A stretch of 64,000 nt of DNA from Propionispira arboris (GCF_900109225.1 NZ_FNZK01000010.1:1-64000); one strand, 5' to 3'. Shown: positions 1 through 40,929, counted from the stretch's first letter. The notes: generated by a model not told the origin, from the sequence alone. Numbers and translations: made by a program.

Positions 1-165
1 TGGTTGTTCGGTTACGCGTTTTGCTTTAGGGAATGGTTGATTGAAATCTTCGATTGCCAAATACTTGCGCACCGTTTTGCGATCACAAGAAAAGGTTTTT
101 GCAATTTGTGAAATATTGAGACCTTCCTCAAAGAACGCTTTTCTGATATAATCAATTTGGGTCAT
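1..165 (-). mobile_element. istA: IS21-family transposase IstA, 5' end (runs off left edge)
   Basis: The minus strand from 165 downwards is open for all 55 codons to the window edge and starts MTQIDYIRKAFFEEG. An N-terminal helix-turn-helix follows, with the typical CDRKTVRKYL stretch. This is the DNA-binding start of an IS21-type IstA transposase. A strong purine-rich ribosome site (GGAGGA) precedes the ATG. The same gene start recurs truncated at 40450. The rest of the element, including istB, lies outside the window, so whether this copy is intact cannot be judged. Confidence 0.85.
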
Positions 166-22236: not shown

Positions 22237-22270
22237 AATGCAGTCACAAAAATGTGGCTGCATTTTTTAT
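22237..22270 (+). terminator. Terminator between xis and int
   Basis: The stem ATGCAGTCACA with TGTGGCTGCAT (one mismatch tolerated) is followed by TTTTTTAT. The integrase ribosome site starts about 30 bases later. Confidence 0.75.
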
Positions 22271-22311
22271 ATGAAAATTTTATACGGAAATATAGAAAAG
22301 AGGTAAATATT

Positions 22312-23487
22312 ATGCCATCAAAAATGAGAAAACGTGGAGAAAATTCATATGAATTGACGGTTACAAATGGGTATGATTTTCAAGGGAAACAGATTATGAT
22401 TCGGAAGACGATCCAAGCTACTAGTGATAGAGATGCAAGAAAACAGTATAGTCAGTTTGAAGCCGAAGTCAGAAGTGGGGCTATTATTAAAACAGGCAAA
22501 CTAAAACTTGCAGAATTTGCTGAACAATGGTTTAGGGATTATTGCCAGGTGAAGCTTGCACCTATGACATTGCGTAATTATAAAAGATATCTAGAAAGAA
22601 GAATAATACCAGCAATGGGACACATTGATATGGTTGATTTGAAACCATATCATATTGTACCTTTTATTAATAGTTTACTAACGCCGGAGAAAAGGCTTGA
22701 TGGTAAATCTGAACCTGTTACGGGGCAAGCTGCGGCCTATTGTTATCGAGTACTGTCATCTATGTTAAATACAGCTGTGAAATGGCAGGTGATTCCATCC
22801 AATCCTTGCGATAGAGTTGATCCACCAGTTATAAAAAGACCTCATACAAGTGCTTTTACAGAAAATGAAGCGCTGAATATGTTGAATATGCTCTCTAATG
22901 AAGAAATAAAGTACAGAATTATGATTTCATTAGCGGTGACAACAGGATTGAGGTTGGGTGAATTGTTAGGTCTCATGTGGACAGATATAGATTTTTATAG
23001 AAATGTTTTGCAGGTTAACAGAAGTTGTCAGTCGTTAGCTGGACATGGCGTATTTACAAAGGAACCAAAGAATGAAAGTTCAATTCGTTGCGTAACATTG
23101 CCCAATACTATAATGGAAATGTTTATACAGTATAAAGCATGGCAGGATCAAGAAAAAGCTCAATTGGGGAATCAATGGATGCAAGGCGATTGGGTATTTA
23201 CCACATGGAATGGATCACTTTTAAATCCATCGACAGTATCACATTGGTTCCATAAATTTTTGAAGCGTAACGGTTTGCCAGAGATCCCTTTTCATGGATT
23301 ACGGCATACTTCAGCCACTTTGTTGTTAAGTGAAGGGGCTTCCCTTAAAAATGTAAGCAGCAGATTAGGTCATTCCGATATAAGAACGACGGGGAATATC
23401 TATGCGCATGCGTTACAAAGTGTGGATAAACAGCTGGCTCAAAAGATGGATGTGTTTTTGAATAAAGGTTCAGATAAAGAGCTATGA
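22312..23487 (+). CDS. int: Tyrosine recombinase/integrase
   Basis: A 391-residue phage/ICE-type integrase. An N-terminal arm-binding domain (residues 1-60), a SAM-like core-binding domain (65-165) and a catalytic domain with the full catalytic set: Arg214 (TTGLRLGE), His328 and Arg331 (HGLRH), His354 (LGHSD) and the nucleophile Tyr364 (NIYAHAL). All key residues are present, so it should be active. The start ATG (22312) has AGAGG upstream. It closes the mobilisation module (MobC, relaxase, Xis, Int), as in integrative mobilisable elements. Confidence 0.9.
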   Translation: MPSKMRKRGENSYELTVTNGYDFQGKQIMIRKTIQATSDRDARKQYSQFEAEVRSGAIIKTGKLKLAEFAEQWFRDYCQVKLAPMTLRNYKRYLERRIIPAMGHIDMVDLKPYHIVPFINSLLTPEKRLDGKSEPVTGQAAAYCYRVLSSMLNTAVKWQVIPSNPCDRVDPPVIKRPHTSAFTENEALNMLNMLSNEEIKYRIMISLAVTTGLRLGELLGLMWTDIDFYRNVLQVNRSCQSLAGHGVFTKEPKNESSIRCVTLPNTIMEMFIQYKAWQDQEKAQLGNQWMQGDWVFTTWNGSLLNPSTVSHWFHKFLKRNGLPEIPFHGLRHTSATLLLSEGASLKNVSSRLGHSDIRTTGNIYAHALQSVDKQLAQKMDVFLNKGSDKEL

Positions 23488-23951: not shown

Positions 23952-26471
23952 CTACTCTTTTAGCAATAACCAATAGGTTGATTTTTTTTGTGTGATAACC
24001 GCGAACGAGCTTTTTTCGATATGATAATCAGGACTTTTGTCAGTGAGACATTTATTTATTTTGTTTAAAGAATATGGAGCAGACTTTGTTTTATCTTCCG
24101 GTCGCTTTCCATACGCATTTTTATATAGAGACTCAAACTTGTTTTTGAATGTATTTTGTTTGATTGAATCCATCCCGTAATCCAGATAAATTTTTTTTTT
24201 GTCTACTTGCAATTTGAATTTGGATTCTGGTTGTGCATTTTCGTCAAGAAAATGAATCAGTTCTTCGATGGAATCTTTAGTCTGTTGTACTTGCTGTTTT
24301 TGTATTGGCGAACTACAATAATTTTTCATATTGAACGACGCTATTTGTTCAATCCAGACAAGTTGCTCTATAATAGTAACATCAATTGTAGCATCATATT
24401 TTTGGCTTTTATGATTAAAAATAGACCGATATTTTTCTTGTTCAGAGATTAATATGGTTTTCTTCTCTTGTAAATCCTCTAGGTCCTTAAGTGGTGGATT
24501 AGTAGTTAATATAGTTTCAATTTTGTCAATTTCATTTGAAAAAAATTCGTATTTTTTCAAATAAGAATAATCAGTAAAGGATAGATGTGGATTATCTTCG
24601 GAGAGATTACCATTTCTGCTTTTTTCCAGATCACTAAGTTGTTGAGCTAGTTCTTTTGGCTTGAGATTGTTCCAGCTTTCAGGAATATGGATATTTTCAT
24701 CTGAAATTAAAGAAGGTTCTGTGCCAGGCTGTTTCGATATTATCTTTTCTAAAAATTTAGATTCATTTAATAAATTTATTTTTGCAAGGTGATTGTACAT
24801 TAACTTTTCATTTTTCTTTAATCCAAAGATGTTTTTAATGTGACTATCCTGCTGTATTAAACGATCATGGAAATTCCGCCGTTCTCTAGGATCCATGGTG
24901 TCAAAATCGGTAAGATCGTTCAAAATCCTCCTTTTAGTGGAAAAAATTTTTTTTAGATACGTAGAACTATATGCGGGAATATATAAATTTACTTGTATAC
25001 GATTAGTCTTGTCAATCCGCAGCCTTCCTAACATTTGCAAGAATTGAGTGCGATCAAAAAGGAAAATAACGATGTGTTTGACAGCTGTATCAGAAATATT
25101 GACACCATTTTCTATAACTGAAGTGGAGATTAAGACCTTAGCTGGAAAGGTTTCAGTTTTGACGATTTGTGTATAATTATCAGCGTCGATAGCATCTTGA
25201 TGGTTATTGGATGAGTATTTAGATTCCATGCTTATAAAAGTAGCCGTATTTTCAGCCTCTTTGTTAAGTTCGTTTTTTAGGAATTCACCAGCCTTTTTAG
25301 AGGGGACAAATACTATCCATTTTTCTTTTGGCTTTTCAATAAGCGTAGTTTTAATTATTCCTAAAATTGGACAATATTGATGTAAAGCATTGTCTTTGTT
25401 ATTTTCATTGTTTTTCTTTGATGAGGAGGAAAAAGAAAAATATTTTGGCTGAATGTAATCGTAGTTGCGAGTTATATCATAGATAACAGCATTTTTTTTA
25501 TTATAAAGAGGCGTTAGTGGTATGGTTTTATTGTTGTGACTGTAGGAAACAAATGTATTTGGTGAATCTGAATCTAAATCCAGATTAAAGTAAAAGTTGG
25601 GAGTAGGTATTCCTACTCGAAAGCTAATTTGTGGCAATGAAAATGGAAATGGAAAAGAATAATAGATATCTTTATTATTGGCAATATGTTTTTCACAGAA
25701 CTTACTAAATAGAAAAGGGAGAGACACTTGTTTGACGTAAAGTGCAAGAGGCGTATTAGGATTATCGAGTGTGAAATCAGCATCGTTGGCAAATAATGGG
25801 ATTTGAGAGTTGTCTGTGATGGAAGCAATGTTCGGTAAACATTCTTTTTTGATAATGCAAGGAATAACATCATCTAGTGTTGCTGACATATATATTCGAA
25901 TAGAATTTTTAAATCTTGTAGTAATGGTTTGGAGAATATGCTCGGTTATATGGTTAAATTTTGCATCTGAAAAGAAAAAATGACATTCATCTATAATGAC
26001 AAAAGCATATTTGTCGTTTAATAAATCTTGATTTCCTAACAAACTTTGATATGAACAAATTTTTATATTTCCAAAATCAAAATAGTTATCGAAGCCCTTA
26101 TCACTATAATTTTCTAATTCTGGTACATATTTTTTGTCGTGTCTGTCAGTTAGGAAATCAATTTTTTCTGCAAGACGTTGTTTTGTTTGCCGACCCAATG
26201 CAATTCTGTTACTGAGTATTAAAATTTTTTCTGGCAGGAAAGAAGTATTTTGATTGTGCTCTAAAATAGCAGGAACCAGGGTGTTTTCAATAAAATAATT
26301 TTTCCCCGAGCCAGTTTGTGCAGAAATAAAAACAGGGGTTTTTGGAGTCCATTTATAAAGCCAGTCATTGCCGATAGCTTCGCTAACAGATGAATTATCA
26401 AAAACGTTATATTGTGTATTTTTTAAATAGCTCATAGGTGAGTCATTGTTGCGAAAAAGCGTTGTGCTCAT
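23952..26471 (-). CDS. SF2 DEAD/DEAH-type helicase, 839 residues
   Basis: A superfamily 2 helicase. Walker A AQTGSGKN at 51-58 (Asn instead of the usual Thr/Ser after Lys), motif II VIIDECHFFF near 165, motif III YMSATL. The C-terminal helicase domain has VLISTSVIENGVNISD and QMLGRLRID (motif VI arginines). The N-terminal 40 and the C-terminal 300 residues are not recognised; the latter are charged and coiled-coil-rich. It is divergent from the dynamin operon, with about 395 bases between them. AAGGAGGATGA precedes the ATG. The role is unknown; the helicase and dynamin genes may form one unit. Confidence 0.75.
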   Translation of the reverse strand: MSTTLFRNNDSPMSYLKNTQYNVFDNSSVSEAIGNDWLYKWTPKTPVFISAQTGSGKNYFIENTLVPAILEHNQNTSFLPEKILILSNRIALGRQTKQRLAEKIDFLTDRHDKKYVPELENYSDKGFDNYFDFGNIKICSYQSLLGNQDLLNDKYAFVIIDECHFFFSDAKFNHITEHILQTITTRFKNSIRIYMSATLDDVIPCIIKKECLPNIASITDNSQIPLFANDADFTLDNPNTPLALYVKQVSLPFLFSKFCEKHIANNKDIYYSFPFPFSLPQISFRVGIPTPNFYFNLDLDSDSPNTFVSYSHNNKTIPLTPLYNKKNAVIYDITRNYDYIQPKYFSFSSSSKKNNENNKDNALHQYCPILGIIKTTLIEKPKEKWIVFVPSKKAGEFLKNELNKEAENTATFISMESKYSSNNHQDAIDADNYTQIVKTETFPAKVLISTSVIENGVNISDTAVKHIVIFLFDRTQFLQMLGRLRIDKTNRIQVNLYIPAYSSTYLKKIFSTKRRILNDLTDFDTMDPRERRNFHDRLIQQDSHIKNIFGLKKNEKLMYNHLAKINLLNESKFLEKIISKQPGTEPSLISDENIHIPESWNNLKPKELAQQLSDLEKSRNGNLSEDNPHLSFTDYSYLKKYEFFSNEIDKIETILTTNPPLKDLEDLQEKKTILISEQEKYRSIFNHKSQKYDATIDVTIIEQLVWIEQIASFNMKNYCSSPIQKQQVQQTKDSIEELIHFLDENAQPESKFKLQVDKKKIYLDYGMDSIKQNTFKNKFESLYKNAYGKRPEDKTKSAPYSLNKINKCLTDKSPDYHIEKSSFAVITQKKSTYWLLLKE

Positions 26472-26866: not shown

Positions 26867-29128
26867 ATGGTAATGAATAAAACAGATCTGTTGCATATTA
26901 TAGACAAAATAAAATTGCTACCCTATATAACAGAAGATATGAAAGAAAAGTATGGTCTACTGCTTAGTGAAATGGAGAGGAGCATGTATGAGCAAGAACT
27001 GCGCATTGCAGTTGTTGGTGAGTTTAGTTCAGGAAAATCTACATTTTTGAATGCCCTGATTGGAAAGGACTTGTTTCCGCATGCAGTTACGGAAACAACA
27101 GCAACGATTACATATATTCATAATGTTATGCCGGATGATTCTCGCTGCAATTCGATGCGAGTTGATTTTTACGATGAAAAAAAGGAAGCAATTACTCTGG
27201 ATTTTGCAGACAACCAATCTATTTTAAAAGATTATTTAACGACAGAATCAAAGATACTTAATGTAGCACAAGATATACAAGCTGTACACGTATTTTGCAA
27301 AGTATTTCCTGACAATCGAAATATTACTATTGTTGATACACCCGGTTTAAATGGAATGGCCGAAGGGCATAGGAAAATTACGATTGAGGAAATATCAAGA
27401 GCACATGCTAGTATTTATTTGTTTAATATTCGTGGAGTTTCAGCAACGGAATTGGATGTTTTGAAGCTTTTGATGGTATACCAGAGCCATTTCATTTTTG
27501 TTTTGAACTTCATTGATCATTTAAATATTGATGAAGGTGAAACTGCTGAAAATAAACTGTGTGAGTTTAAAAAACAGTTATCACAGTATGGAACGAATGA
27601 ATGTATTTCTGATAAAGCATGTTTTGCGATATCCGCGTTGTATGCATTAGTTGCCAGAGATAAAAGTATAAAAAAATTATATAAAGATGATATAACAGAG
27701 GTCACGGATGAACAACGTGAAAAATTAATTATAGACTCTCATATGCAAAACTTAGAAACATATTTATGGAATTTGGCAGGGGAAAACTTTGCGACCTTTT
27801 TGCAGCAGGCGGTTCAGAGTAAGGTACTATTAATATTAAAAGAAATGCAGGATGATATAAATTATTATCAAATGCAACGCAGTATCGTTAATTCAGAAAA
27901 TAATAAAAATGCAATACAAGATCAGTTGGTTCAACGCAATAGTCGCTTTATGACATATCAGCAAAATTTGCAGGAGTATATTCAAAGAGAATGTAGTTCT
28001 CTTCAGAATGCGTTAAGCGACAAAGTAAGAAAGAATATAAAAGATTTTGAAATGGAAAAAAAACGAGAAATAAATGAACTTCAGATTGAAAATGATGAAG
28101 ACATAGAGGCGTTTGTTCGAAATACGAACTCTGCTAAACAACAAATGACGGTTCAATATCAATATCAAGTCTTAAATTTGTTGGAGTCGGTTTATCAGAA
28201 TTCTATCTGTAAAGCAGACGCATTTGTTTCTAAAGTGCAGATACAAAATAATGGCGATATTGCTTTTCAAAAGATGGAGGAACCGCAAGATGTAATGACA
28301 ATAAGAAAAAAAGTTGATGAGTATGACGCACAAATCAATGAACTTGGTGATAAATTAGATAAAGAAAAAGCCGAAAGAAATCAATTGAAGCGTGATGTTG
28401 CAAAATGGCGGGATGCAATTCCCTGTAAGGAAACGGAAAAAAATCGAGCAATAGCCATGACTGATATAGCCATTAAACAGCTGAGCATATGCCCAGCAAT
28501 AGAAGAAAAACCTGTTACTAGGTATCGTGAGAAAGAAACTCACTGGTATAATCCATTTTCATGGGCTGGCGGGATGGAAACTTATACAGCGTATGAAAAA
28601 GATTCATCAAAAAAGAGCGTATGGGAGAGAAAAAAGGCAGAGCTTGAATTTGTTAAAAAAGAAAAAATACGAAATTTTAACTACGACATCGAAGAATTGC
28701 AAAGCAAAATTGAGCTGACCGAACAGAAAATAAACAAGGCAGATTTGATTCGTGAATATTTATATCGAATAGAGCATGTCGAAACATACAAAAAAGAGTA
28801 TCTTGCATTACAAGAAAAAATGCAAAAACAAGCACATCAGGAATTTTTGCAGAGTGAACGAAAAAAAATTCAAGAAAAAATAGACGACTTTACGAGACTT
28901 GTGGGTGAAACATTAGTGCAATCAATAAAGCTAGCAGTCGAAGAAAATAAAAATAGAATATGTACGGATGTTTTGCGGCATCATGGTTTGCTGTGGGAAA
29001 CCGAAGTGAAAAGATTAAATGGGCTGATGAATAAATATCAAAAAAGCAATGTAACAGAAAATGGAATATCTTTATTCAAAAAGCAAGTCGAATTACTTAT
29101 AGGTATATTTCATGTAGGAGTTGAATAA
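26867..29128 (+). CDS. Dynamin-like GTPase 1
   Basis: A 753-residue protein. The GTPase domain has G1 GEFSSGKS at 51-58, switch Thr in TETTATIT, and G3 DTPGLNG. The G4 position reads LNFIDHLN, which lacks the usual Lys of N/T-K-x-D, so guanine selectivity may be altered. A long helical stalk with extensive coiled coil (residues 320-540 and 600-750) follows, and a tryptophan/aromatic loop HWYNPFSWAGGME near residue 559 could contact membrane, as the paddle does in bacterial dynamins. First gene of a six-gene, tightly spaced operon. GAGGTGAT precedes the ATG. Confidence 0.8.
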   Translation: MVMNKTDLLHIIDKIKLLPYITEDMKEKYGLLLSEMERSMYEQELRIAVVGEFSSGKSTFLNALIGKDLFPHAVTETTATITYIHNVMPDDSRCNSMRVDFYDEKKEAITLDFADNQSILKDYLTTESKILNVAQDIQAVHVFCKVFPDNRNITIVDTPGLNGMAEGHRKITIEEISRAHASIYLFNIRGVSATELDVLKLLMVYQSHFIFVLNFIDHLNIDEGETAENKLCEFKKQLSQYGTNECISDKACFAISALYALVARDKSIKKLYKDDITEVTDEQREKLIIDSHMQNLETYLWNLAGENFATFLQQAVQSKVLLILKEMQDDINYYQMQRSIVNSENNKNAIQDQLVQRNSRFMTYQQNLQEYIQRECSSLQNALSDKVRKNIKDFEMEKKREINELQIENDEDIEAFVRNTNSAKQQMTVQYQYQVLNLLESVYQNSICKADAFVSKVQIQNNGDIAFQKMEEPQDVMTIRKKVDEYDAQINELGDKLDKEKAERNQLKRDVAKWRDAIPCKETEKNRAIAMTDIAIKQLSICPAIEEKPVTRYREKETHWYNPFSWAGGMETYTAYEKDSSKKSVWERKKAELEFVKKEKIRNFNYDIEELQSKIELTEQKINKADLIREYLYRIEHVETYKKEYLALQEKMQKQAHQEFLQSERKKIQEKIDDFTRLVGETLVQSIKLAVEENKNRICTDVLRHHGLLWETEVKRLNGLMNKYQKSNVTENGISLFKKQVELLIGIFHVGVE

Positions 29129-29131
29129 ATA

Positions 29132-31480
29132 ATGAGTGAAATAAAAAATGAAGCAATACTGTACAAAAAAGCTCATTCAGAGAGAAAAAACAATATAATG
29201 TCATTGCTTCTCGATACAAAAAAATTTTTTCTTGAATATCATAAAGAACAGGCCGATACGTTTGAAAAATTATATGATGATTTAAAAAACGGGGATTTTT
29301 CAATTGTTGTAGTTGGTGAATTTAGTGCGGGTAAGTCAACTTTTTTAAATGCACTAATGCAAAAAGTTTATTTGCCTTCCTATTCAAGTGAAACTACGGC
29401 GACGGTGAATTTTTTAAAGCATATAGATAAAGCACCTGACGGGCATAGTTTGTGCGTATATTATAATGATACTCAAAAGGAAACATTATATGGCATAGCG
29501 AATGAAAATTCATTGGCTGATTTTGTCACCACAAGAAGCTCACTGGATGTTGCTTCACAGATTAATCGAGTTGAATTATATGTAGATTCAAAGTTTTTAG
29601 AAGATGGTGTCGTCCTAGTTGACAGCCCAGGGTTGAATGGTGTGGCCAAGGGGCATCGTGAAATAACAGAAAAGCAGATTGAAAAATCACATGCTTGTAT
29701 TTTTTTGTTTTCCGCTGAACAGCCAGGACGTTGTAGCGATTTTGATTTTTTGCAGCAGTTGACCGCAAAAGTAGACCGCGTTTTTCTCGTGTTAAATAAA
29801 ATTGACATGATTAAAGAAGAGGAACAAACCGTGGTTGATGTGGTTCGTATTATTAAAGATAGCTATCATATTAAGTTTCCTAATGCCAAAATACCGGAAA
29901 TTTATCCAGTGGCGGCTTATCCGGCTTTGGTTGCTCGTTCTGATCGACCATTATCTTATCTGCAAAAAAAAGAGCATTCGGGTGAAGCGAAAGCATCATA
30001 TTTAAAAAATTCGCAAATTGAAGCTTTTGAAGAACGTTTATGGAAGTTTTTAACGTGTGGAGAAAAAACAAAAGAAGAATTAATGGCACCTATCCAGAAA
30101 ATAGAAAAATTGGTTGATCAATATCGACAAATGCTTATGAATAAAAAATCGGTATTAGAAGAAAGGAAAGATACAGGTGAACTGGAAAATGCAATTCTCA
30201 TGTTGCAAGATGAAATACAAAAATTGAATATAGAAACGACCGATCAAAATAACCAAGTCGCTAAAATGCTAAAAACTGCAATTAGGTCTTTAGAAATAGA
30301 AGTAAAAAACGTGCAAAGAAGAGTTGGTGACAACTTTAAAGCGCAGATCGATGATTGGGTAAGTATTGAAGATATTGCCAGTGAAGTGAAAAATTTTCAA
30401 ACTAACGTAGTATCTGCTTATACTCGTGAGATTGAAGATCTATTTTATACTTTTGACAATCAAATTAGTGACTCGATTTTTGGAATTGTTTCCGGTAATT
30501 TAATGGAAATTGATAAAAAACTAGCAACTGTTAGTAAAATAGCTCTAGAAATTCAAACAGAGCCGAATTTGGAAAATATTATAAAATATCATAATAAAGA
30601 TAAGTATGATGAAGATATAGAGAAAATCGAAAAAGACTTACAATCTTTAAATGATAGTGTAGAACAAGGAATCTATGATCTTAAGTCGGCTGAGAATATT
30701 ACTAAAGAACGTGACAATTTAAATAAAAATTTGCAAAAGATAAAAGATGATAAATTATTGTCAGTTGAGTCTTTTATACCTCCCATAAGATATAATGAGA
30801 AAGAGGAGAGAATTTTGCGCGATCGCCGTGGTTGGGGCGGGAAATTAATGCAAATATTCGTTGGGAAAAAAGATGATATTAAGATGGTAACTAATAGGGA
30901 TGATAGTGATCAAAAAGATTTTCTGCAAAAACGAAAGATAAAATTAGAAGAATACGAAAAACAAGAAAATGAAATAAAAGTGGAATTATCTAATTTGGGG
31001 AAACCAAATTCTCTCCTTGATTATGAACAAATATGTTCCAAAGAAAAACGATTGCGTGCAGTTAAAGAAAAAGAATTAGAAGAGTTTAAAAAAGACTTCA
31101 AAGAAAAATTTGAAAAGGGAAATAGGGAGTCATTAAGGAAATTAAAAATTCAATTACGAAGGTTTTTGGACGACTGTTACGATGAGATACATAAGCAGAT
31201 TCAAAATGAGTATAGCCAAAAGCAACGGAAAATTGCAGAGCTTTTGAATGAACAGATTAACGCGTCTACAATTGAAATCATTATGAATAAACAGCAACAG
31301 ATCGAAAATGTACAAAGTCAATTGAAATCGTCGGTAGAAGAACGCAATGATAAAATCGCAGAGTACCAAAATCAAATAGAAGTAAGTGGTGTGTTGTTAC
31401 AAAAAGCAGCTTCGTTGAGACTGGATATTGAGGTAATCGAAACGGATATGATCAAAATGGAGGATTATAGTGAAAAATAA
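29132..31480 (+). CDS. Dynamin-like GTPase 2
   Basis: A 782-residue protein. G1 GEFSAGKST at 62-70, switch Thr in ETTATV, G3 DSPGLNGVAKGH, and a canonical G4 LNKIDMI. The rest is a long helical stalk rich in coiled coil. It begins three bases after the stop of GTPase 1 and its own end overlaps GTPase 3 by 11 bases. It is clearly related to GTPase 1 (GEFS-GKSTFLNAL and PGLNG-A-GHR are shared), so the first two probably arose by duplication. Confidence 0.82.
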   Translation: MSEIKNEAILYKKAHSERKNNIMSLLLDTKKFFLEYHKEQADTFEKLYDDLKNGDFSIVVVGEFSAGKSTFLNALMQKVYLPSYSSETTATVNFLKHIDKAPDGHSLCVYYNDTQKETLYGIANENSLADFVTTRSSLDVASQINRVELYVDSKFLEDGVVLVDSPGLNGVAKGHREITEKQIEKSHACIFLFSAEQPGRCSDFDFLQQLTAKVDRVFLVLNKIDMIKEEEQTVVDVVRIIKDSYHIKFPNAKIPEIYPVAAYPALVARSDRPLSYLQKKEHSGEAKASYLKNSQIEAFEERLWKFLTCGEKTKEELMAPIQKIEKLVDQYRQMLMNKKSVLEERKDTGELENAILMLQDEIQKLNIETTDQNNQVAKMLKTAIRSLEIEVKNVQRRVGDNFKAQIDDWVSIEDIASEVKNFQTNVVSAYTREIEDLFYTFDNQISDSIFGIVSGNLMEIDKKLATVSKIALEIQTEPNLENIIKYHNKDKYDEDIEKIEKDLQSLNDSVEQGIYDLKSAENITKERDNLNKNLQKIKDDKLLSVESFIPPIRYNEKEERILRDRRGWGGKLMQIFVGKKDDIKMVTNRDDSDQKDFLQKRKIKLEEYEKQENEIKVELSNLGKPNSLLDYEQICSKEKRLRAVKEKELEEFKKDFKEKFEKGNRESLRKLKIQLRRFLDDCYDEIHKQIQNEYSQKQRKIAELLNEQINASTIEIIMNKQQQIENVQSQLKSSVEERNDKIAEYQNQIEVSGVLLQKAASLRLDIEVIETDMIKMEDYSEK

Positions 31481-33857
31481 ATTAGAACAAACTATTGTTG
31501 TTGCTAAATATTTAGATGATAGCAAAAATATATCAATACTCGAACATATGCTTAATACTTACCAAAACAAACAGTTCTATTTGCCGTTTATTGGCCAATT
31601 TAGTGCAGGTAAATCAAGGTTAATTAATGAATTATTGGGAGAAAAAATTCTTCCAGTACGGTTAACAGAAACAACAAGTGCAATTACTGAAATTTCTTAT
31701 GGAAACAATGCAATTGTATTGCATATGAAAGATGGAAGTACGGACTGTCGTGAACTATCTGATTTGTTGCAAATCTATCAGGGGAATTCTGAACTGGAGA
31801 TTGAGACGATTCAAAACATTGATGTTGCATTGGAAAATGAACTATTGCAAGCTGGTATGATTCTTGTCGATACACCGGGGCTTAATACAATCATTGAGCA
31901 GCATGAGCGGTTTTCCTATGAAATATTGCCGTATGCAGGTGCAGTGATTTATGTGATGGAAAAATCATTAACGCAGACAGACAAACGAATCATTGAAAAT
32001 TTAGGAAAATTAGGAATCAAATTAATTTTTGTAAGAACGAAAATTGATTTGATTCATGATACAGAAGATGAACTCGATTCAGTCTTAGAAAAAGACAAGA
32101 ATACTCTGAAAAGCGTTTTGGCAGATAAAAATGATTTGCTATATTATGCAGTAAGTGTAGAGGATTCTTCAATTACTCCTGCTGATAGAAAAATGAGTTG
32201 GCAGGCATTTGAAAATTATTTAAAAATATCTTTAGTTGACAATATCACGGCGGTTTGTGAAGTTTCGACCCAACATAGATTGGAAAAAATTTGCAGTGAA
32301 TTACAAGAACAGCTAAAAAGAAAACTAGTAGCAATACAAAGCCAAAAAGAAAAGAGCATCCAAGAAATAGAAGCAAATTTAATAGATGTAAACAGGTTAG
32401 AGGAGGATTTTTTAGATAATAAAAAGGCGATTGCTCTTGAACAGAAGCGAAAATTAAGTAAGCTAAATAGCTATCTAATTGATTCTACAGAGATGAAGGT
32501 ACAGCAGTCAGTTCATCAATATGAGAATAAACTACAGCAAATCAGTGATCGCAATGAATTATACAAAAACGGAAATGAACTGATGCGAAAAGATGGTGAC
32601 TTATTACTTGCTGCCTTGAAAAAAAATATCTCCGTAGAAACAAAACAATATTTTAGTTCCCTAAAACAAGAGTATATTACTTGTTTACAAGGGCTCGCTA
32701 GTATACTAGAGGTTTCAGCGGATATGCAAGACGTAGAGACGGAGCAGCCGCAAGACATAGATTCTATCAGCCAATATATGGATGAGAAAATCTATTTTTA
32801 TCAGCAAAATTTAGCGGATTTAAAACTTCTTAGTCATAAAAATGACAATGAATTAAAAAATATGGGACTTCAGCGGGATGAAATAGAACAGCTTTTGAAG
32901 GAGACGGCTGAACAAAAAAATGCTGCATCTAGTCAGATAAATGAATTAGGACCGTATGTTCCAAATATGATACAAATTGAAGGCAATGATGATGGATCGA
33001 AATTGGGTCGAAAAATCGGTGATACATTGGATGTTGCAATAACACTAGCGATGCTTTTTTGCCCAGCCACAACAGCTAGCGGAGCAGCAAAAGGGGCTGC
33101 CCTAGCTGGTAAAGGTGCCAAAATAGTGAAAAATGTATCGAAAGTCAATAAAATTCTTGCGACAACTAGAAAAGCAGTTGATGGAGTTAAAAAAGTGGCT
33201 GAATTAGTAGCACAGCGGAAAAAAGAAAAAATGATGGAGACTAGCCCCATGGAACAGGGAAAAGAAGGTAGATTGAAATTTTTAGACTATCTTGATTTAG
33301 GTCATTGGGGAGAAACTATAGGGTCTACGTTTGATACACCAGCGATATTGCAGGAAGATCTTGAATTTAAGAGAGAATATGTGGAAGCACAAGGTATTCT
33401 TAACAGGAAATATAATGATGCTATAGAAAACCAAGTGCGTAAAGAACGTGAAAAACAAATACTGATAAGCGATCTGGCAGAAAAACAACGCAGGCAGGAA
33501 CTGCTGGTGCGAAAAGAAAAACAAATACAGGTCGAGTTAGAAAAAAAACAGCAAGAAATTAGGAATAAACAGCTAGAAAGAGATATGGAAAAACATCGCC
33601 ATCAGCTTTGTGATCAATATAAAGTCAAAGGTAAAGCGTTGCAGGAGCACCTGATGGAAAGGTGGGAACAGTATATGCATGAAAATATGATGCAAGTGGT
33701 TCTTTATAACACATTGGAAGTGGAAAAAGGTATACATAATGAGAGGGCCAGTCTTGAAGATATAATTGTTCATAAAAATGAAAGGAAAAGTTGTTATCAG
33801 CAAAAAGAGCAAGAAATAAGTGGCTATATGAAAATCTTACAGCAGAATGCCTTGTGA
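31470..33857 (+). CDS. Dynamin-like GTPase 3 with hydrophobic segment
   Basis: A 795-residue protein. G1 GQFSAGKSRLINEL at 42-55, switch TETTSAI, G3 DTPGLNT, and G4 VRTKIDLI. It is more divergent than the first two. Near residues 518-560 there is a hydrophobic, glycine/alanine-rich stretch (AITLAMLFCPATTASGAA, then GAALAGKGAKIV), a candidate membrane-inserting paddle; the two other GTPases lack it. Its C terminus is a long charged coiled coil. The start is GTG with GGAGG 7 bases upstream, inside the end of GTPase 2. Confidence 0.8.
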   Translation: MKNKLEQTIVVAKYLDDSKNISILEHMLNTYQNKQFYLPFIGQFSAGKSRLINELLGEKILPVRLTETTSAITEISYGNNAIVLHMKDGSTDCRELSDLLQIYQGNSELEIETIQNIDVALENELLQAGMILVDTPGLNTIIEQHERFSYEILPYAGAVIYVMEKSLTQTDKRIIENLGKLGIKLIFVRTKIDLIHDTEDELDSVLEKDKNTLKSVLADKNDLLYYAVSVEDSSITPADRKMSWQAFENYLKISLVDNITAVCEVSTQHRLEKICSELQEQLKRKLVAIQSQKEKSIQEIEANLIDVNRLEEDFLDNKKAIALEQKRKLSKLNSYLIDSTEMKVQQSVHQYENKLQQISDRNELYKNGNELMRKDGDLLLAALKKNISVETKQYFSSLKQEYITCLQGLASILEVSADMQDVETEQPQDIDSISQYMDEKIYFYQQNLADLKLLSHKNDNELKNMGLQRDEIEQLLKETAEQKNAASSQINELGPYVPNMIQIEGNDDGSKLGRKIGDTLDVAITLAMLFCPATTASGAAKGAALAGKGAKIVKNVSKVNKILATTRKAVDGVKKVAELVAQRKKEKMMETSPMEQGKEGRLKFLDYLDLGHWGETIGSTFDTPAILQEDLEFKREYVEAQGILNRKYNDAIENQVRKEREKQILISDLAEKQRRQELLVRKEKQIQVELEKKQQEIRNKQLERDMEKHRHQLCDQYKVKGKALQEHLMERWEQYMHENMMQVVLYNTLEVEKGIHNERASLEDIIVHKNERKSCYQQKEQEISGYMKILQQNAL

Positions 33858-35014
33858 GAACATTATTTTCAATTGTAGAGCAATATCCGCAGATGGTTTT
33901 TATTGGTGATGGAAGATATCAATTACTTCGAGAAATTCAAAAAAGTTGTTATCAATTTACAATTCAAAATCAAATAAACGCAACTTATGATGTTGTGTTA
34001 TATCCATGCACAAATATAAAGCCTTTTGCAAAACTTTACAATAGTGTCTATATTTCAATTGGTGATTTGGAAGAATTAGAACAGGCAGATACGATATATT
34101 TTCCTTTTTTTAAAGAGGATTTTGTTCCTGAACTCTGTTATTGTTTTTCTCGAGCAAATTTAAAAGAAAATTTTATGGAAAATAGAAATATTGAAAAATT
34201 GGTTCTCATAGATGAGTATCCATGGGGACAAGAAAGTCTCTCATGGTTGTTAAGACAGCTTGAATTTATGCTAGATCAACAACGACGATATATAGATGTA
34301 CAGGTTGTGCTTTTATCTGATGAACGGCGCTATGGAGCAACGGATATCAGTGATAATAGAATGGCATTAGAAAAAGCCTGTGCTTTTTATCAAACAGAGA
34401 CGATGTGTTCCAATATTACTGAATTTAGTACAGAAAAATTTTCTTTGAAATTGTTTGCCGCGAATCTCAAGAGAAATGATAAATTTCTACAAAGTTTTTT
34501 TGATGTTCAACAGAGAAAGTTTTCGAGACAAAAAGAACAATTTAGAGAAATGTTTGAAATTGAATGGAGTATGAAAGGTTATTTACAAAAAATAGAGTTT
34601 CATACAATTTTTGATTTTACACAAGAAATGGAAACAAAAGGTTATCAAGAAGTATGGGTTGAGTCTATTGGAAAATTTTTACAAAGGCATGTTTATCAGG
34701 ACGTAGTTATATGGATAAGAAGTGAACTAGGAATTTTGTATAATGAAAAAGAAATACAAACTTTTTTATGTGAGTTAAAAAATGGATGGATTCAAAAAAT
34801 TACAAAGATCATAAAAATGGAAAAAGTAGTATATCCTAAAACCAAAATCGAATATTATGAGTTCGTTTCAATAAGTCAACGACGTCAAATTGAAAAAATA
34901 ACACAAGAGCATGTACAACAAAATATAAAAGATGCGATAGAGACCATTATTAATAAAAAGTATGAAGCTTGGATTGAAAAAGTGGAGAAAGACAGGGTGA
35001 GCCGTACACGATGA
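33854..35014 (+). CDS. Unknown protein of the dynamin operon
   Basis: A 386-residue protein without a recognised family. The first 130 residues alternate strands and helices in a Rossmann-like way (MVFIGDGRYQLLREI, then NIEKLVLIDEYPWG), suggesting a nucleotide-binding or receiver-like fold without a P-loop. The rest is helical and basic. The GTG at 33854 overlaps the previous stop as GTGA, so translation is coupled; an upstream frame back to 33791 is only a continuation into GTPase 3. Confidence 0.55.
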   Translation: MRTLFSIVEQYPQMVFIGDGRYQLLREIQKSCYQFTIQNQINATYDVVLYPCTNIKPFAKLYNSVYISIGDLEELEQADTIYFPFFKEDFVPELCYCFSRANLKENFMENRNIEKLVLIDEYPWGQESLSWLLRQLEFMLDQQRRYIDVQVVLLSDERRYGATDISDNRMALEKACAFYQTETMCSNITEFSTEKFSLKLFAANLKRNDKFLQSFFDVQQRKFSRQKEQFREMFEIEWSMKGYLQKIEFHTIFDFTQEMETKGYQEVWVESIGKFLQRHVYQDVVIWIRSELGILYNEKEIQTFLCELKNGWIQKITKIIKMEKVVYPKTKIEYYEFVSISQRRQIEKITQEHVQQNIKDAIETIINKKYEAWIEKVEKDRVSRTR

Positions 35015-36090
35015 AAAATAGATTACTTATAGCAATATTGTCAGGAATCACATTGGTTTTATTTTGTGGGATTTTTGTTGTAGATCCGTCAATACGCATT
35101 ATCATAGTAGGCGTATTTGGAACTTTGGCAGCTTGTTTAATATATATAGGATTAGATTTTATAAATACACGTTTGTTAAAGGATGAAGCAAAACGAGCAG
35201 AGACTTTGTCTGAAAAATTTAGTGGTTTGAGTGATATAGCGTTGACATGGCGAAAAGATTTTAATGATTATTTGGTGACAAGAAACGATACGCATAGAAA
35301 TAATGGAATAGTTATATCACAAATTAGCGGTGAGATTAATCTTTTAATTGATTCAATAAGTAGACAAACAGAAACACTTCTGCAAATAAAAGAAGATGAT
35401 AATATTGTGAAAAGTTTGGATGAAATTGAAGCACAGATTCAAACTTTAAATCGGATGAATGCAGAAACACAAAAAATGCATAATAAAACACTGCTAGAAA
35501 AATTTGAGGGGCTGGGCACACAAAATAAAGAAATTATTCAAAGTATGTATAATATAGAAAAAAATACTTGTGAGATAAATAAAATTAGTGAAAAACAATT
35601 TTTACATATGCAGGAAAATATAGAATTACTATTTAGGTCAGTCGAAAAGGTTGTATCTCAAGATGAAAAAGTTCAAGAGAAATTATCAACAGAGATTACT
35701 TCAATGCAGATGACTTTATTAGAAGTACAGAAACAGTTCGCTGAAAACGCTAAGATGCAATTGCAAGAGCAAACACAATTGATGCAAAACTATCTAAATA
35801 AGATGGAGAAAACAATAAAAGGGATAATGGAAAGCTTTGAAGATAATAGTCAGCAATGTCTTAATGGTATAGAAGACAATGTGAGCCATGACGTAAAGGC
35901 GCTATGCAATGATATATTGGATGTAGTTGAGACCATGGAAGTGCAACAAGAAGGTTTAAATAAAATCATCCAGGAGCAGCCTAAGCTTATTGAATCCTTT
36001 AAAAATGAATTGACTAATATGCATGAAGAATATTGTAGCATGAATGAAAACGATATTACTTTGATGGAGAAAATGCTAAATGCAAAATGA
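35011..36090 (+). CDS. Membrane-anchored coiled-coil protein of the dynamin operon
   Basis: A 359-residue protein. Two membrane helices lie at residues about 5-23 and 27-50, then a long, mostly uninterrupted coiled coil runs to residue about 350 (E/K/Q-rich, with repeated NIEK, QTETLLQI and MQENIE patterns). The architecture recalls stator or tail proteins of membrane-tethered defence complexes (for example ZorA) but with no sequence evidence of homology. It overlaps the previous gene by ATGA and the next by 11 bases. Confidence 0.65.
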   Translation: MKNRLLIAILSGITLVLFCGIFVVDPSIRIIIVGVFGTLAACLIYIGLDFINTRLLKDEAKRAETLSEKFSGLSDIALTWRKDFNDYLVTRNDTHRNNGIVISQISGEINLLIDSISRQTETLLQIKEDDNIVKSLDEIEAQIQTLNRMNAETQKMHNKTLLEKFEGLGTQNKEIIQSMYNIEKNTCEINKISEKQFLHMQENIELLFRSVEKVVSQDEKVQEKLSTEITSMQMTLLEVQKQFAENAKMQLQEQTQLMQNYLNKMEKTIKGIMESFEDNSQQCLNGIEDNVSHDVKALCNDILDVVETMEVQQEGLNKIIQEQPKLIESFKNELTNMHEEYCSMNENDITLMEKMLNAK

Positions 36091-36370
36091 AGAAATATAT
36101 TTTATTCAAAATGCGCTTATTCATCGAATAATAGAAAATATAAAAGAAGAAACGATTTATAATCAAGAGATTCAAAAAATATTAGCGCAAGCAGTGATGC
36201 GAAATAATCATCAAACAATTATGGACAGATTGGCGCTGATGAATGGTCTTATTGGTCAAATATACGAGAATTTGTCTTTGCGAAATTATCGTCGGGTTAT
36301 GCATTTATTAATTATATTAGAATTGCAGAAAAGGAAATTAATGATTGTTGGAGAGTCATTAATTTCTTGA
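36080..36370 (+). CDS. Small helical protein, last gene of the dynamin operon
   Basis: A 96-residue, all-helical protein of unknown family. It starts within the end of the coiled-coil gene and ends the six-gene run; a weak hairpin with a T-rich tail (about 36392-36418) follows. Confidence 0.5.
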   Translation: MQNEEIYFIQNALIHRIIENIKEETIYNQEIQKILAQAVMRNNHQTIMDRLALMNGLIGQIYENLSLRNYRRVMHLLIILELQKRKLMIVGESLIS

Positions 36371-36811: not shown

Positions 36812-37639
36812 TTGATAACATGTTTTAATCCTGCACTAACTATATCGGAAGTGGAGCCTTTATTTGAAAATTTGAAATTTTTAGATGTACTGAAACCTGG
36901 CGCTGAAGGAGCGGTATTTAAATGTTGTAGTGTGAAAGATGGTAAAGAAGTTTTGCTTAAAATTTATGGACCAGATCGTCCAATAAGAAGAACAGAATTA
37001 GAAATTAGCAAGCTTTTAACAGCAAGAAGTCCATATTTATGCCATTTGATTTCAAGTGGGAAAAAGAGTGTTAGATCTAGAGATTGCCGTTATTTAATAA
37101 CAGATTATATAAATGGTACAAATTTAGCGGATTTTCTTAATTCAGGGGAAAAACTTAATAATGATCAAGCAGAAAAACTGGTTTTACATATAGCACATGC
37201 GGTGCAAGCATTGTGGAATGTAAAGGTTGTTCATAGTGATATAAAGCCAGATAACATAATACTTAGTAGTACAGGTGAATTTATATTGATTGATCTAGGT
37301 GTTGCTAAACATTTAGATGCAGAACAAATTACAGAAATAACTGTTTTATGCTTTGGAACTAATGGGTATTTGGCACCAGAACAATTTACTGGCCGTAAAA
37401 ACTTAACTTTAAGGGCGGACTTTTATGCTGTTGGTATTACTGCATGGCAAGCGATTGTTGGTTATCATCCATTTGGTTACAACCAAGCATTAATGAAACA
37501 GCCGCTTCCCCCATTTCCAGAAGGGATAATAATTAAACCTAATTTAGCAGGGGCAATTCGCAATTTATCAAATCCTGTTGTTTATAGACGCCCAGTTAGT
37601 TATGCTGTGATAGCTAAAGAAATTAAGGGGGATAAATAA
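36812..37639 (+). CDS. Serine/threonine protein kinase
   Basis: A 275-residue eukaryotic-type kinase with only the catalytic domain. The glycine loop is weak (KPGAEGAVF), Lys50 is in VLLKIYG, the catalytic loop is HSDIKPDN (Asp143), the metal loop is DLG (161-163, in place of DFG), and the activation segment ends GTNGYLAPEQ. No membrane or PASTA domain is present, unlike PrkC/StkP housekeeping kinases. The start is TTG with GGAGGAG 7 bases before it. It overlaps the next gene by one base (TAATG). Confidence 0.85.
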   Translation: MITCFNPALTISEVEPLFENLKFLDVLKPGAEGAVFKCCSVKDGKEVLLKIYGPDRPIRRTELEISKLLTARSPYLCHLISSGKKSVRSRDCRYLITDYINGTNLADFLNSGEKLNNDQAEKLVLHIAHAVQALWNVKVVHSDIKPDNIILSSTGEFILIDLGVAKHLDAEQITEITVLCFGTNGYLAPEQFTGRKNLTLRADFYAVGITAWQAIVGYHPFGYNQALMKQPLPPFPEGIIIKPNLAGAIRNLSNPVVYRRPVSYAVIAKEIKGDK

Positions 37640-38883
37640 TGTTTTTATATAACAGAGGTTACCATTCAACTCTAAATGATGTTAGTCCAGCAGGTGTGAT
37701 TCTTTGTACATCATTGCTAGATCATCCCACTTTGAAAAAAAGGAATTTTGATTATAAAGTTAACATGGCATTATTAGATCCGCAAATTTATCTTTGGTCG
37801 GTTGATGAAAATGAATGTCTGTCAACTCATAAAAAAATTATTTCTTATCCGTGGGTGAAAACAATGTCAGTAGATGATCCGTTAAGGTTTGATGCAGGAT
37901 GTATTATTACACCTAAGACAGACGCAGAAATAACAGCCTGTTTAACAAAGTGTTTTGAAATTCAAAAAAGTTTTGGTGCTACTCAAATTATAATTCCAAC
38001 ACCGCTTGCTATTGCAAGGGAAGATCAATTTAGTGAACAGTTAAGATGGCTAGAGTTAGCGGAGCCATTTAAAAATAAATATGATGAACCATTTTTTGCT
38101 ACAATTGCATTATCTGATAAAACACTTTTAAATTGTAAATTTGAAAATAATCTGATGCTTCAAACGATATTAGATAATGCTGCGTTAATGCAGCATATTG
38201 ATGGGTATTACATTGTAGTTGAACGAGATTCACCAATAATTCAAATCGTTGAAGTAAATATTGCAAGGGCGCTACTTGAATTGACCTATAATCTGGGTCA
38301 TTGTCAAGATAAGGCTGTTGTAGTTAACTTTGCTGATGTTTTTGGACTCGTATGTATGGCGGTTGGTGCTACCGCATTTGGAAGTGGATACACAACGAAA
38401 GAACGACGATTATCTTTTGATGATTTTATTGACCAGAAGGGAGGAATGGCATTGCCACGCTATTATTCAAGTAATTTAATAGGTGATTTTTATTCTGAAC
38501 GTGATTTAAATAAAATTATCGGCATAAAATTACTTAGATACATTTCGGAGGATATTATCACATCGCATAGCAATGTATTAATTACTGCGTTAAAACAAAA
38601 AAATTCAGTAGATAAAATAGCGGCATGGAAGGAAAGTCGAAGCAATACCGCTGCAGCTTCAAAACATCGAGTAGCTTGTTTAACAAAGCAAGTTAGTGAT
38701 ATTATGCAATATAATACAATTGAGGAAAAGCTTGAATGTGTTTTAATATGGATTCAAGATGCTGAGGCGAAGATGGAATACCTAAAATCTAGGCTTAAAG
38801 ATGATCCGTTGAATGAAGATGGACGGCATCTTAGTGTATGGCGTAAAGCACTTGATGAATTTATGATATCAAATAAGCTATAA
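37639..38883 (+). CDS. Unknown partner of the kinase, 414 residues
   Basis: I do not recognise the family. Strand-helix alternation through residues 15-260 (GVILCTSLL, TQIIIPTPLAIA, DGYYIVVERDSP, KAVVVNFADVFGLV, ATAFGSGYT) resembles a TIM barrel. The C terminus is helical. Tight coupling to the kinase suggests a substrate or partner; a role in defence is inferred from the neighbourhood only. A strong terminator follows. Confidence 0.55.
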   Translation: MFLYNRGYHSTLNDVSPAGVILCTSLLDHPTLKKRNFDYKVNMALLDPQIYLWSVDENECLSTHKKIISYPWVKTMSVDDPLRFDAGCIITPKTDAEITACLTKCFEIQKSFGATQIIIPTPLAIAREDQFSEQLRWLELAEPFKNKYDEPFFATIALSDKTLLNCKFENNLMLQTILDNAALMQHIDGYYIVVERDSPIIQIVEVNIARALLELTYNLGHCQDKAVVVNFADVFGLVCMAVGATAFGSGYTTKERRLSFDDFIDQKGGMALPRYYSSNLIGDFYSERDLNKIIGIKLLRYISEDIITSHSNVLITALKQKNSVDKIAAWKESRSNTAAASKHRVACLTKQVSDIMQYNTIEEKLECVLIWIQDAEAKMEYLKSRLKDDPLNEDGRHLSVWRKALDEFMISNKL

Positions 38884-40289: not shown

Positions 40290-40542
40290 TTATGGCATAA
40301 TGAAATAGGATAAAGTTGTAAATAAAAATTCCCACTTATACAAAACAGAATTCCTCAAAAATGCAAAAAACCATTGCGGACAAGAATCAAATAACCTACC
40401 ATTATTAGGTGACAAAACACTAAAAGGGGAGGACTGGAGGCTGCTCACAATGGACCAAATTGATTATATCAGAAAAGCGTTCTTTGAGGAAGGTCTCAAT
40501 ATTTCACAAATTGCAAAAACCTTTTATGGTGAGTTCGGATGA
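40290..40542 (+). pseudogene. istA: IS21-family end with truncated istA start, right copy of an inverted pair
   Basis: Bases 40290-40525 are the mirror of 90-325 (ungapped, about 94%). The istA ATG is at 40450 with GGAGGACTGGAGG upstream. The protein reads MDQIDYIRKAFFEEG for 25 family residues and is then broken, with a TGA at 40540-40542. The rest of the IS is gone, so it is not mobile. Confidence 0.8.
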
Positions 40543-40564
40543 ATTTATCCTCTTTTGGGACTCA

Positions 40565-40579
40565 TGATGATAGGAATTG
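40565..40579. repeat. 15-bp direct repeat of the tRNA-Thr 3' part (possible att remnant)
   Basis: TGATGATAGGAATTG occurs here and again at 40860-40874, inside the 3' half of the tRNA-Thr gene and in the same orientation. Integration into tRNA 3' ends duplicates just such a segment. Confidence 0.45.
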
Positions 40580-40815
40580 TGTGATGTTTTAGAAATTTAC
40601 AAAGTGTGGATATCAAATGCAAAATAATTTATGATGAAATTTTTTTGCAATTTAAAGAGACGCTATTTGTCATGTCAGAATAAAACCATGAGGGTTTTTG
40701 TAGTGGTATATAGCTGAAGTGGATTTTTGACCTGTATTTTTTAGAATAAATAAAGATAATTGTAGATTTTTTCGTTAAGGCGCAAATAAGGCGCATTGCC
40801 TTAAATTTAGACAAT

Positions 40816-40842
40816 AAAAAAGCCTCCGAAAACCTCGGAGGC
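40816..40842 (-). terminator. Terminator of the tRNA-Thr gene
   Basis: On the minus strand the stem GCCTCCGAGG/CCTCGGAGGC-like pairing (GCCTCCGA with TCGGAGGC) is followed by TTTTTTATTG, 11 bases past the CCA. Confidence 0.85.
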
Positions 40843-40853
40843 ATTGATAACAC

Positions 40854-40929
40854 TGGAGCTGATGATAGGAATTGAACCTACGACCTGCTCATTACGAATG
40901 AGCTGCTCTACCAACTGAGCTACATCAGC
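40854..40929 (-). tRNA. tRNA-Thr (anticodon CGT)
   Basis: A 76-base cloverleaf on the minus strand: acceptor stem GCTGATG/CATCAGC, D arm GCTC/GAGC, anticodon stem GCTCA/TGAGC with loop TTCGTAA (anticodon CGT), T arm GTAGG-TTCAATT-CCTAT, and an encoded CCA end. It marks the right border of the accessory block and is a classic integration target. Confidence 0.95.

What the first reader, a model, noticed from the sequence alone, without database searches (positions are those of the whole stretch)
26867..36370. Six-gene operon with three dynamin-like GTPases and a membrane-anchored coiled-coil protein
Seen directly: three large GTPases with intact P-loops, all on one strand, spaced 3, -11 and -4 bases, then an unknown Rossmann-like protein, a two-helix membrane protein with a 300-residue coiled coil, and a 96-residue helical protein, all with overlapping starts and stops. 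Known: pairs of bacterial dynamins tubulate or fuse membranes, and LeoA/LeoBC (Eleos) is an anti-phage system. Inferred: this is an expanded, membrane-acting defence system. Only GTPase 3 has a hydrophobic paddle-like segment, and GTPase 1 lacks the G4 lysine, suggesting division of labour.
Basis: partly seen in the sequence, partly recalled or inferred. Interest (0 to 1): 0.82.

Follow-up and report, generated by a model that had tools for sequence, protein, structure and literature searches.

The report
Mobile four-dynamin membrane-remodelling operon
A six-gene cassette that recurs in scattered bacteria and on a plasmid encodes three membrane-shaping GTPases of the dynamin family, a fourth dynamin-like protein that seems to have lost its GTP-binding loop, a membrane-anchored coiled coil and a small helper, and probably works as one membrane-remodelling machine, perhaps against viruses.

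Summary
In detail: six same-strand genes (gaps 3, -11, -4, -4, -11 bp), three with intact dynamin GTPase motifs. The order GT1-GT2-GT3-D4-E5-F6 recurs in nine other loci (seven in full, one with a shortened GT3, one without a recognised F6), including a Lysinibacillus plasmid, Bacillus, Clostridia and a Bacteroidales MAG. A second subtype fills the last three places with other proteins. The three GTPases were inherited together, but their tree does not follow host taxonomy, so the unit moves horizontally. The window copy lies in an island beside a tRNA-Thr; a sister species lacks it. New here: D4, an 'unknown Rossmann-like' protein, is predicted to have a dynamin-type GTPase fold without a P-loop, so the operon encodes four dynamin-family proteins. 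E5 keeps a C-terminal motif while its length varies from 252 to 1286 aa. Defence is plausible (Gabija, restriction or candidate defence genes near several copies) but unproven: neighbours were not compared with a random control, and a four-gene version without GT3 and E5 sits at a fixed place in most species of one Oscillospiraceae genus, as a host gene would. I found no description of it; best filed as a new variant of bacterial dynamin operons.

The parts
26867..29128 (+). GT1, dynamin-like GTPase, 753 aa; P-loop GEFSSGKS, G3 DTPGLN, G4 NFID (no lysine)
   Evidence: PDB Cj-DLP2 5owv_C E 5.6e-13
28493..28639 (+). tip region of GT1 (residues 543-591), short aromatic/Gly loop followed by D-S-S
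   Evidence: family alignment
29132..31480 (+). GT2, dynamin-like GTPase, 782 aa; most conserved member; G4 NKID
   Evidence: family profile hits BDLP1 2j68 E 4.2e-26
30776..30937 (+). tip region of GT2 (residues 549-602), RRGWGGKLMQIFVGKK...DDS
   Evidence: family alignment
31470..33857 (+). GT3, dynamin-like GTPase, 795 aa; P-loop GQFSAGKS, G4 TKID
   Evidence: PDB BDLP1 2j68 E 3.2e-10
32967..33344 (+). hydrophobic tip insert of GT3 (residues 500-625), conserved in nine aligned orthologues
33854..35014 (+). D4, 386 aa (GTG start): predicted dynamin-like GTPase fold (residues 3-207) plus helical stalk, no P-loop (IGDGRY in its place)
35011..36090 (+). E5, 359 aa: N-terminal two-helix membrane hairpin, long coiled coil, conserved C-terminal motif
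35011..35154 (+). E5 membrane hairpin (about residues 1-48)
   Evidence: hydropathy and alignment
36031..36087 (+). E5 conserved C-terminal motif (window: MNENDITLMEKML)
36080..36370 (+). F6, 96 aa helical protein with conserved R-x-A/V-[LM] ... LLxxLE motif
   Evidence: HMM hits; alignment
22252..23487 (+). tyrosine integrase upstream in the same island (context, not part of the operon)
   Evidence: Pfam Phage_integrase E 1.7e-29
40774..40929 (.). right junction of the island: synteny with the sister species starts at 40774, next to tRNA-Thr(cgt) 40854-40929 on the - strand

Best explanation
A horizontally moving operon for one heteromeric membrane-remodelling complex. GT1, GT2 and GT3 are BDLP/mitofusin-type GTPases that form mixed oligomers (inferred). 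D4 is a dynamin-fold protein that has lost its P-loop and acts as a non-hydrolysing partner or brake (inferred). E5 anchors the assembly to the cytoplasmic membrane through its hairpin and reaches into the cytoplasm with a coiled coil of variable length, its conserved C-terminal motif docking the complex (inferred). F6 is an adaptor or sensor (inferred). When the membrane is perturbed, GTP-driven assembly tethers, seals or otherwise remodels it (inferred from B. subtilis DynA and Cj-DLP1/2). The most likely use is protection of the population against phage or envelope attack. Shown here: gene content, conservation, GTPase motifs, co-inheritance, horizontal spread, predicted D4 fold. Inferred: complex formation, membrane action, defence.
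For: Three intact GTPases with full-length homology (GT1-GT2 hhalign E 5.5e-85, GT2-GT3 6e-44), closest solved proteins BDLP1 and the Cj-DLP pair. GT1, GT2 and GT3 each form one clade and their distance matrices correlate at 0.84-0.96, with 0 of 2000 permutations as high: they travel together. D4: Foldseek top hits Cj-DLP2 (7e-7), EHD4, LeoA (6.5e-5), mitofusin-1; VIA-align Z 12.8 to Cj-DLP2 and 11-13 to small GTPases; same fold from the window protein at lower confidence. Conserved E5 hairpin and C-terminal motif. Mobility: plasmid pFN9A, tRNA-Thr island absent from the sister species, tree at odds with host taxonomy, operon GC 0.33 against 0.39 in the downstream chromosome. Defence context: Gabija GajA/GajB elsewhere in the island, type I restriction, PDC-S02, PDC-S26, PDC-S27, GajB or Orf5/HEC genes beside other copies, WYL regulators near three, patatin or EcsC genes just downstream in two. 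Literature: DynA delays phage-induced lysis and needs GTPase activity (PMC8844932); Cj-DLP1/2 tethers membranes as a tetramer (PMC6104087).
Against: No experiment. The four-gene version: GT2 is present in 10 of 11 species of one genus, with shared flanks in most of the copies read, more like a host function. Defence neighbours were not compared with a random control, and the adjacent genes tested were picked by eye. No complex was modelled. The D4 models have moderate confidence (pLDDT 60 and 77) and D4 shows no profile similarity to the GTs. Flanks of L022, L023, L024 and L025 are mostly ordinary genes.
Confidence: 0.5

Rival explanations
1. A membrane maintenance or stress-repair machine for the host cell (as proposed for DynA and IniA), not a dedicated anti-phage system; its patchiness reflects niche-specific stress.
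For: GT1-GT2-D4-F6 occupies a fixed chromosomal place with shared flanks in most species of one genus; several copies lie among metabolic genes; bacterial dynamins respond to membrane damage generally (PMC8844932).
Against: Rare and patchy elsewhere: 4 of 300 in the window's class (GT3 search), 3 of 349 Bacilli including the query genome, only the query genome in 345 and 398 others; plasmid and island settings; adjacent restriction and candidate defence genes. The reduced version lacks GT3 and E5, so it may have been repurposed.
Confidence: 0.3
2. Abortive infection: once triggered, the dynamins permeabilise or fragment the infected cell's own membrane, and the downstream phospholipase of one variant adds to this.
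For: Patatin-like phospholipase about 16 bp downstream of F6 in L028; GT3 hydrophobic insert; an anchored tether and a non-hydrolysing partner could hold a toxic machine in check.
Against: The best-studied relative, DynA, protects membranes (PMC8844932); the patatin occurs in one locus only; the D4, F6 and E5 slots are mostly constant rather than exchanged like effectors; a core version in one genus argues against toxicity.
Confidence: 0.15
3. A function serving the mobile element itself, such as membrane vesicle release or exclusion of rival elements, rather than the host.
For: Found on a plasmid and in an integrase- and relaxase-bearing island; leo dynamins affect vesicle-associated secretion in E. 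coli (PMC4159319).
Against: A reduced version sits at a fixed chromosomal place in one genus; no full relative was found in the phage and viral collections.
Confidence: 0.05

Closest known systems
Eleos (LeoA / LeoBC)
   Same: Tandem bacterial dynamins on a genomic island; GT1 and GT2 match the PADLOC LeoBC model (3e-17, 4.5e-22) and GT2 the LeoA model (6.5e-18); a D4 model resembles LeoA 4aur.
   Different: Three GTPases plus a P-loop-less fourth, a membrane coiled coil and a small helper; curated LeoA/HP0731 cut-off not reached (15-18 of 325 bits); GT3 matches no Leo model.
Campylobacter Cj-DLP1/Cj-DLP2 pair
   Same: Heterotypic dynamins encoded side by side, BDLP/mitofusin-like (PMC6104087); among the closest solved structures.
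   Different: Two proteins, not four; no E5 or F6; Cj-DLP2 is a GTPase with its motifs, whereas D4 has no P-loop.
Bacillus subtilis DynA
   Same: More than one dynamin unit acting at the membrane; published role in delaying phage lysis (PMC8844932).
   Different: Single fused chromosomal protein. The window's genome has its own separate 1243-aa two-GTPase frame elsewhere.
Nostoc BDLP1
   Same: Best sequence match of GT2 and GT3 among solved structures.
   Different: Not part of a six-gene operon of this kind (from general knowledge; not tested here).
Zorya ZorA
   Same: Membrane anchor followed by a long intracellular tail; weak tail matches of E5 (1e-4).
   Different: E5 has only a short hairpin; no MotA/ExbB motor domain was found.

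Membership tests
Bacterial dynamin-like proteins (GT1, GT2, GT3) | Dynamin_N GTPase domain above the curated cut-off | tested here: met
   86, 89, 71 bits against 27
Bacterial dynamin-like proteins (GT1, GT2, GT3) | G1 to G3 motifs intact | tested here: met
Bacterial dynamin-like proteins (GT1, GT2, GT3) | membrane binding and GTP-dependent oligomerisation | not testable with these tools
   needs biochemistry
Eleos | LeoA of the LeoA/HP0731 family | tested here: not met
   NCBIfam NF041922 15.2 (GT1) and 17.8 (GT2) bits, cut-off 325; PADLOC LeoA matches GT2 only
Eleos | LeoBC partner next to LeoA | tested here: inconclusive
   PADLOC LeoBC matches GT1 and GT2 over part of the model, but so might other dynamins
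Dynamin superfamily (D4) | GTPase fold followed by helical stalk | tested here: met
   predicted models only: Foldseek E 7e-7 to Cj-DLP2, VIA-align Z 11-13
Dynamin superfamily (D4) | P-loop GxxxxGK[ST] | tested here: not met
   G[DE] followed within a few residues by [RK][YF] stands in its place in the 15 aligned D4 proteins
Dynamin superfamily (D4) | sequence-profile similarity to known dynamins | tested here: not met
   hhalign against GT1-GT3 about as weak as shuffled controls; no PDB sequence match
Anti-phage defence system | lowers phage plating or infection in a test host | not testable with these tools
   no experiment
Anti-phage defence system | enriched next to known defence genes | tested here: inconclusive
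   present at several loci but no random control was run
Zorya | ZorA MotA/ExbB-type motor domain | tested here: not met
   no such Pfam match in E5; only weak coiled-coil matches to ZorA

The most novel reading that the evidence does not exclude
A previously undescribed immune machine built from four dynamin-family proteins, one of them an inactive partner, held at the membrane by a coiled-coil tether whose length varies about fivefold between species, which senses and reshapes the membrane during phage attack.
Probability: 0.3. Interest if true: 0.82.

Novelty: new variant of a known kind. Interest (0 to 1): 0.6.

Why it matters
Bacterial dynamins are known mostly as singles, fusions or pairs, and what they do in cells is largely open. 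A compact, mobile operon with three GTPases, a built-in P-loop-less partner, a membrane tether and a small helper gives a genetically separable system in which roles can be tested one by one, with a natural experiment: the version lacking exactly GT3 and the tether. If it is defensive, it would add a many-part dynamin system to the short list of anti-phage mechanisms that act on membranes, and a bacterial parallel to Mx and other antiviral dynamin-superfamily GTPases.

Tried and rejected
D4 as an ordinary Rossmann enzyme: no significant Pfam, NCBIfam, PADLOC, PHROG or PDB sequence match; the structural evidence points to a GTPase fold. D4 related to the GTs by sequence profile: none found. The middle proteins of the divergent subtype (L034, L109, L110) as D4: not detectable. 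Membership in Eleos: rejected on the curated LeoA cut-off. Kinase and next gene (36812-38883) as part of the unit: 441 bp away and not seen beside other copies. Phage or viral origin: viral scans found nothing and the phage collection one weak partial match; a viral scan with the D4 alignment could not be run. Attachment-site repeat in 20000-44000: none found; the contig starts at window base 1, so the left end of the island is unseen. A short end-like sequence near 40522-40901 recurs in the sister genome but was not resolved into att sites. Promoter matches no more than in shuffled sequence. First tree script was stopped by a labelling error, redone. A control for the defence neighbourhood was considered and not run.

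Full report
Observation. The first three score far above the Dynamin_N cut-off and keep the G1, G2 and G3 motifs. The fourth gene starts at a GTG at 33854. GTPase 1 lacks the G4 lysine, as do all 13 family members compared; some GT2 and GT3 orthologues lack it too, so the feature is real but alone does not show division of labour.

Recurrence. A plasmid search found a 38% identical GT2 on Lysinibacillus capsici pFN9A, inside the same six-gene order. Searches of the window's class and of GTDB contigs, with HMMs built from the hits, gave more. Outside the window the full order, GT1 to F6, is in L020 (pFN9A), L022, L023 and L024 (window's class), L025 (Bacillus), L027 (Pseudoflavonifractor) and L128 (a second copy in genome G1666); L028 (a Clostridiaceae MAG) has a GT3 of only 448 aa; L030 (a Bacteroidales MAG) has no recognised F6. 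L130 (genome G1668) has three GTs, a distant D4, a coiled-coil protein without a detected hairpin but with the E5 C-terminal motif, and a 99-aa protein in the F6 slot. L034, L109 and L110 form a divergent subtype: three GTs followed by different proteins, the last with a membrane segment and coiled coil. L026, L035 and L061 are cut by contig ends. Most gene pairs overlap or lie within about 30 bp in the full copies.

Inheritance. GT1, GT2 and GT3 form three clades (best-clade F1 0.90, 0.93, 0.93; the GT1 node itself is weakly supported). Their distance matrices correlate at 0.84 to 0.96, none of 2000 permutations as high. D4 follows less tightly (0.36 to 0.43), as expected for a fast-changing protein. 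The GT1+GT2 tree puts the window copy with Bacilli and Bacteroidales copies (0.99), away from its class mates, which group with Clostridia (1.00): horizontal transfer. The four-gene copies nest inside the three-GT tree beside a six-gene copy, so GT3 and E5 were probably lost together once. That is one event and is weak evidence that they form a functional pair.

Setting in the window. The operon lies in an AT-rich region (GC 0.33 against 0.39 downstream) with a Gabija pair (GajA 5e-177, GajB 7e-214), a GmrSD-type gene, a caspase-like gene, an ERF recombination gene, a relaxase and a tyrosine integrase. In the only other genome held of its genus, 98% identical sequence begins at window 40774, beside tRNA-Thr, and the operon is absent. 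The left end is not visible because the contig starts at window base 1.

D4. Sequence searches found nothing significant. A model of the window protein had mean pLDDT 60 but already resembled Arf- and Rag-type GTPases over residues 3-207 (VIA-align Z near 10) and a dynamin stalk over 208-382 (Z 8.8). A model of the orthologue in L031, pLDDT 77, gave Cj-DLP2 (7e-7), EHD4, LeoA (6.5e-5) and mitofusin-1 as top Foldseek hits and VIA-align Z 11-13, 964 of 999 chains at Z 8 or more. Strands and helices alternate as in a GTPase domain and a helical stalk follows. The P-loop is missing: strand 1 is followed by G[DE] and, a few residues on, [RK][YF] in the 15 aligned orthologues. A distant relative, L130, reads IIGEFSSLISFL there, close to the GTs' VVGEFSSGKSTFL; being one sequence, this is a hint only. 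A shared fold does not prove function, and profile comparison with the GTs is negative.

E5 and F6. In the copies of the main type E5 runs from 252 to 1286 aa with a conserved C-terminus of the form (M/L)(N/T)xxD(M/V/I)xx(L/I) in most, and an N-terminal membrane hairpin in all but L130. Conserved ends with a middle of free length suggest a tether. F6 is short and helical with a conserved R-x-A-[LM]...LLxxLE segment. L028 carries a patatin phospholipase about 16 bp after F6, L023 an EcsC-family gene about 21 bp after F6.

Distribution. Full-length GT3 was found in 4 of 300 genomes of the class, the window's included. GT2 at E 1e-100 was found in 3 of 349 Bacilli (one being the query genome) and only in the query genome among 345 and 398 others. 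By contrast, 10 of 11 species in one genus have GT2. In most copies read there it is the four-gene version GT1-GT2-D4-F6 with shared flanks. G1668 showed only a six-gene copy, and G1666 has both kinds.

Function. For defence: mobile setting, rarity, and strong PADLOC matches near several copies: type I restriction and PDC-S02 (L110), PDC-S26 (L109), PDC-S27 (L030), GajB (L034), Orf5 and HEC-07 (L027); WYL regulators near L025, L027 and L128, a family often linked to defence (PMC9122601). Against: no random control, hand-picked neighbours, metabolic neighbours at L022, and the fixed four-gene version. B. subtilis DynA delays phage lysis and needs its GTPase lysines (PMC8844932); Cj-DLP1/2 tethers membranes as a mixed tetramer (PMC6104087). 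By analogy I infer a mixed dynamin complex at the membrane, with D4 as a non-hydrolysing partner and E5 as anchor. I rate the shared machine likely (about 0.7) and defence as its main role about even; 0.5 for the whole statement.

Novelty. The searches of the paper library found no description of a three- or four-dynamin operon with these partners, but only openly licensed papers are held. The family is known, the assembly is not: new variant of a known kind.

Noticed in passing
L021 8960-15908 (Lysinibacillus pFN9B) and L038 6735-13871: A different three-dynamin operon with a small trailing gene; the first GTPase is about 1000 aa with SH3-like repeats in its tail (by eye). Found on a second plasmid of the same strain and on the L. 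yapensis chromosome.
   Followed up: partly
window 36812-38883: Ser/Thr kinase followed directly by a 414-aa protein without significant family matches, just downstream of the operon; possibly a separate two-gene unit.
   Followed up: no
window 23952-26471 (- strand): Divergent 839-aa DEAD/ResIII-type helicase with no PADLOC match at 1e-6, next to the operon.
   Followed up: no
window 14888-16516: Flagellin gene with a long repeat-rich middle insert inside the mobile island.
   Followed up: no
window 6728-8263: Caspase-like protein (Peptidase_C14 2e-19) between a GmrSD-type gene and a RadC-like gene.
   Followed up: no
window 83-115 and 40500-40532: A 33-base sequence recurs near the ends of many contigs of this genome, probably an insertion sequence that breaks the assembly.
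   Followed up: no
L029, L031, L032, L033 and L132-L134: A DUF7005-type gene upstream and a four-helix membrane protein on the opposite strand downstream accompany the four-gene version; a functional link is possible.
   Followed up: partly
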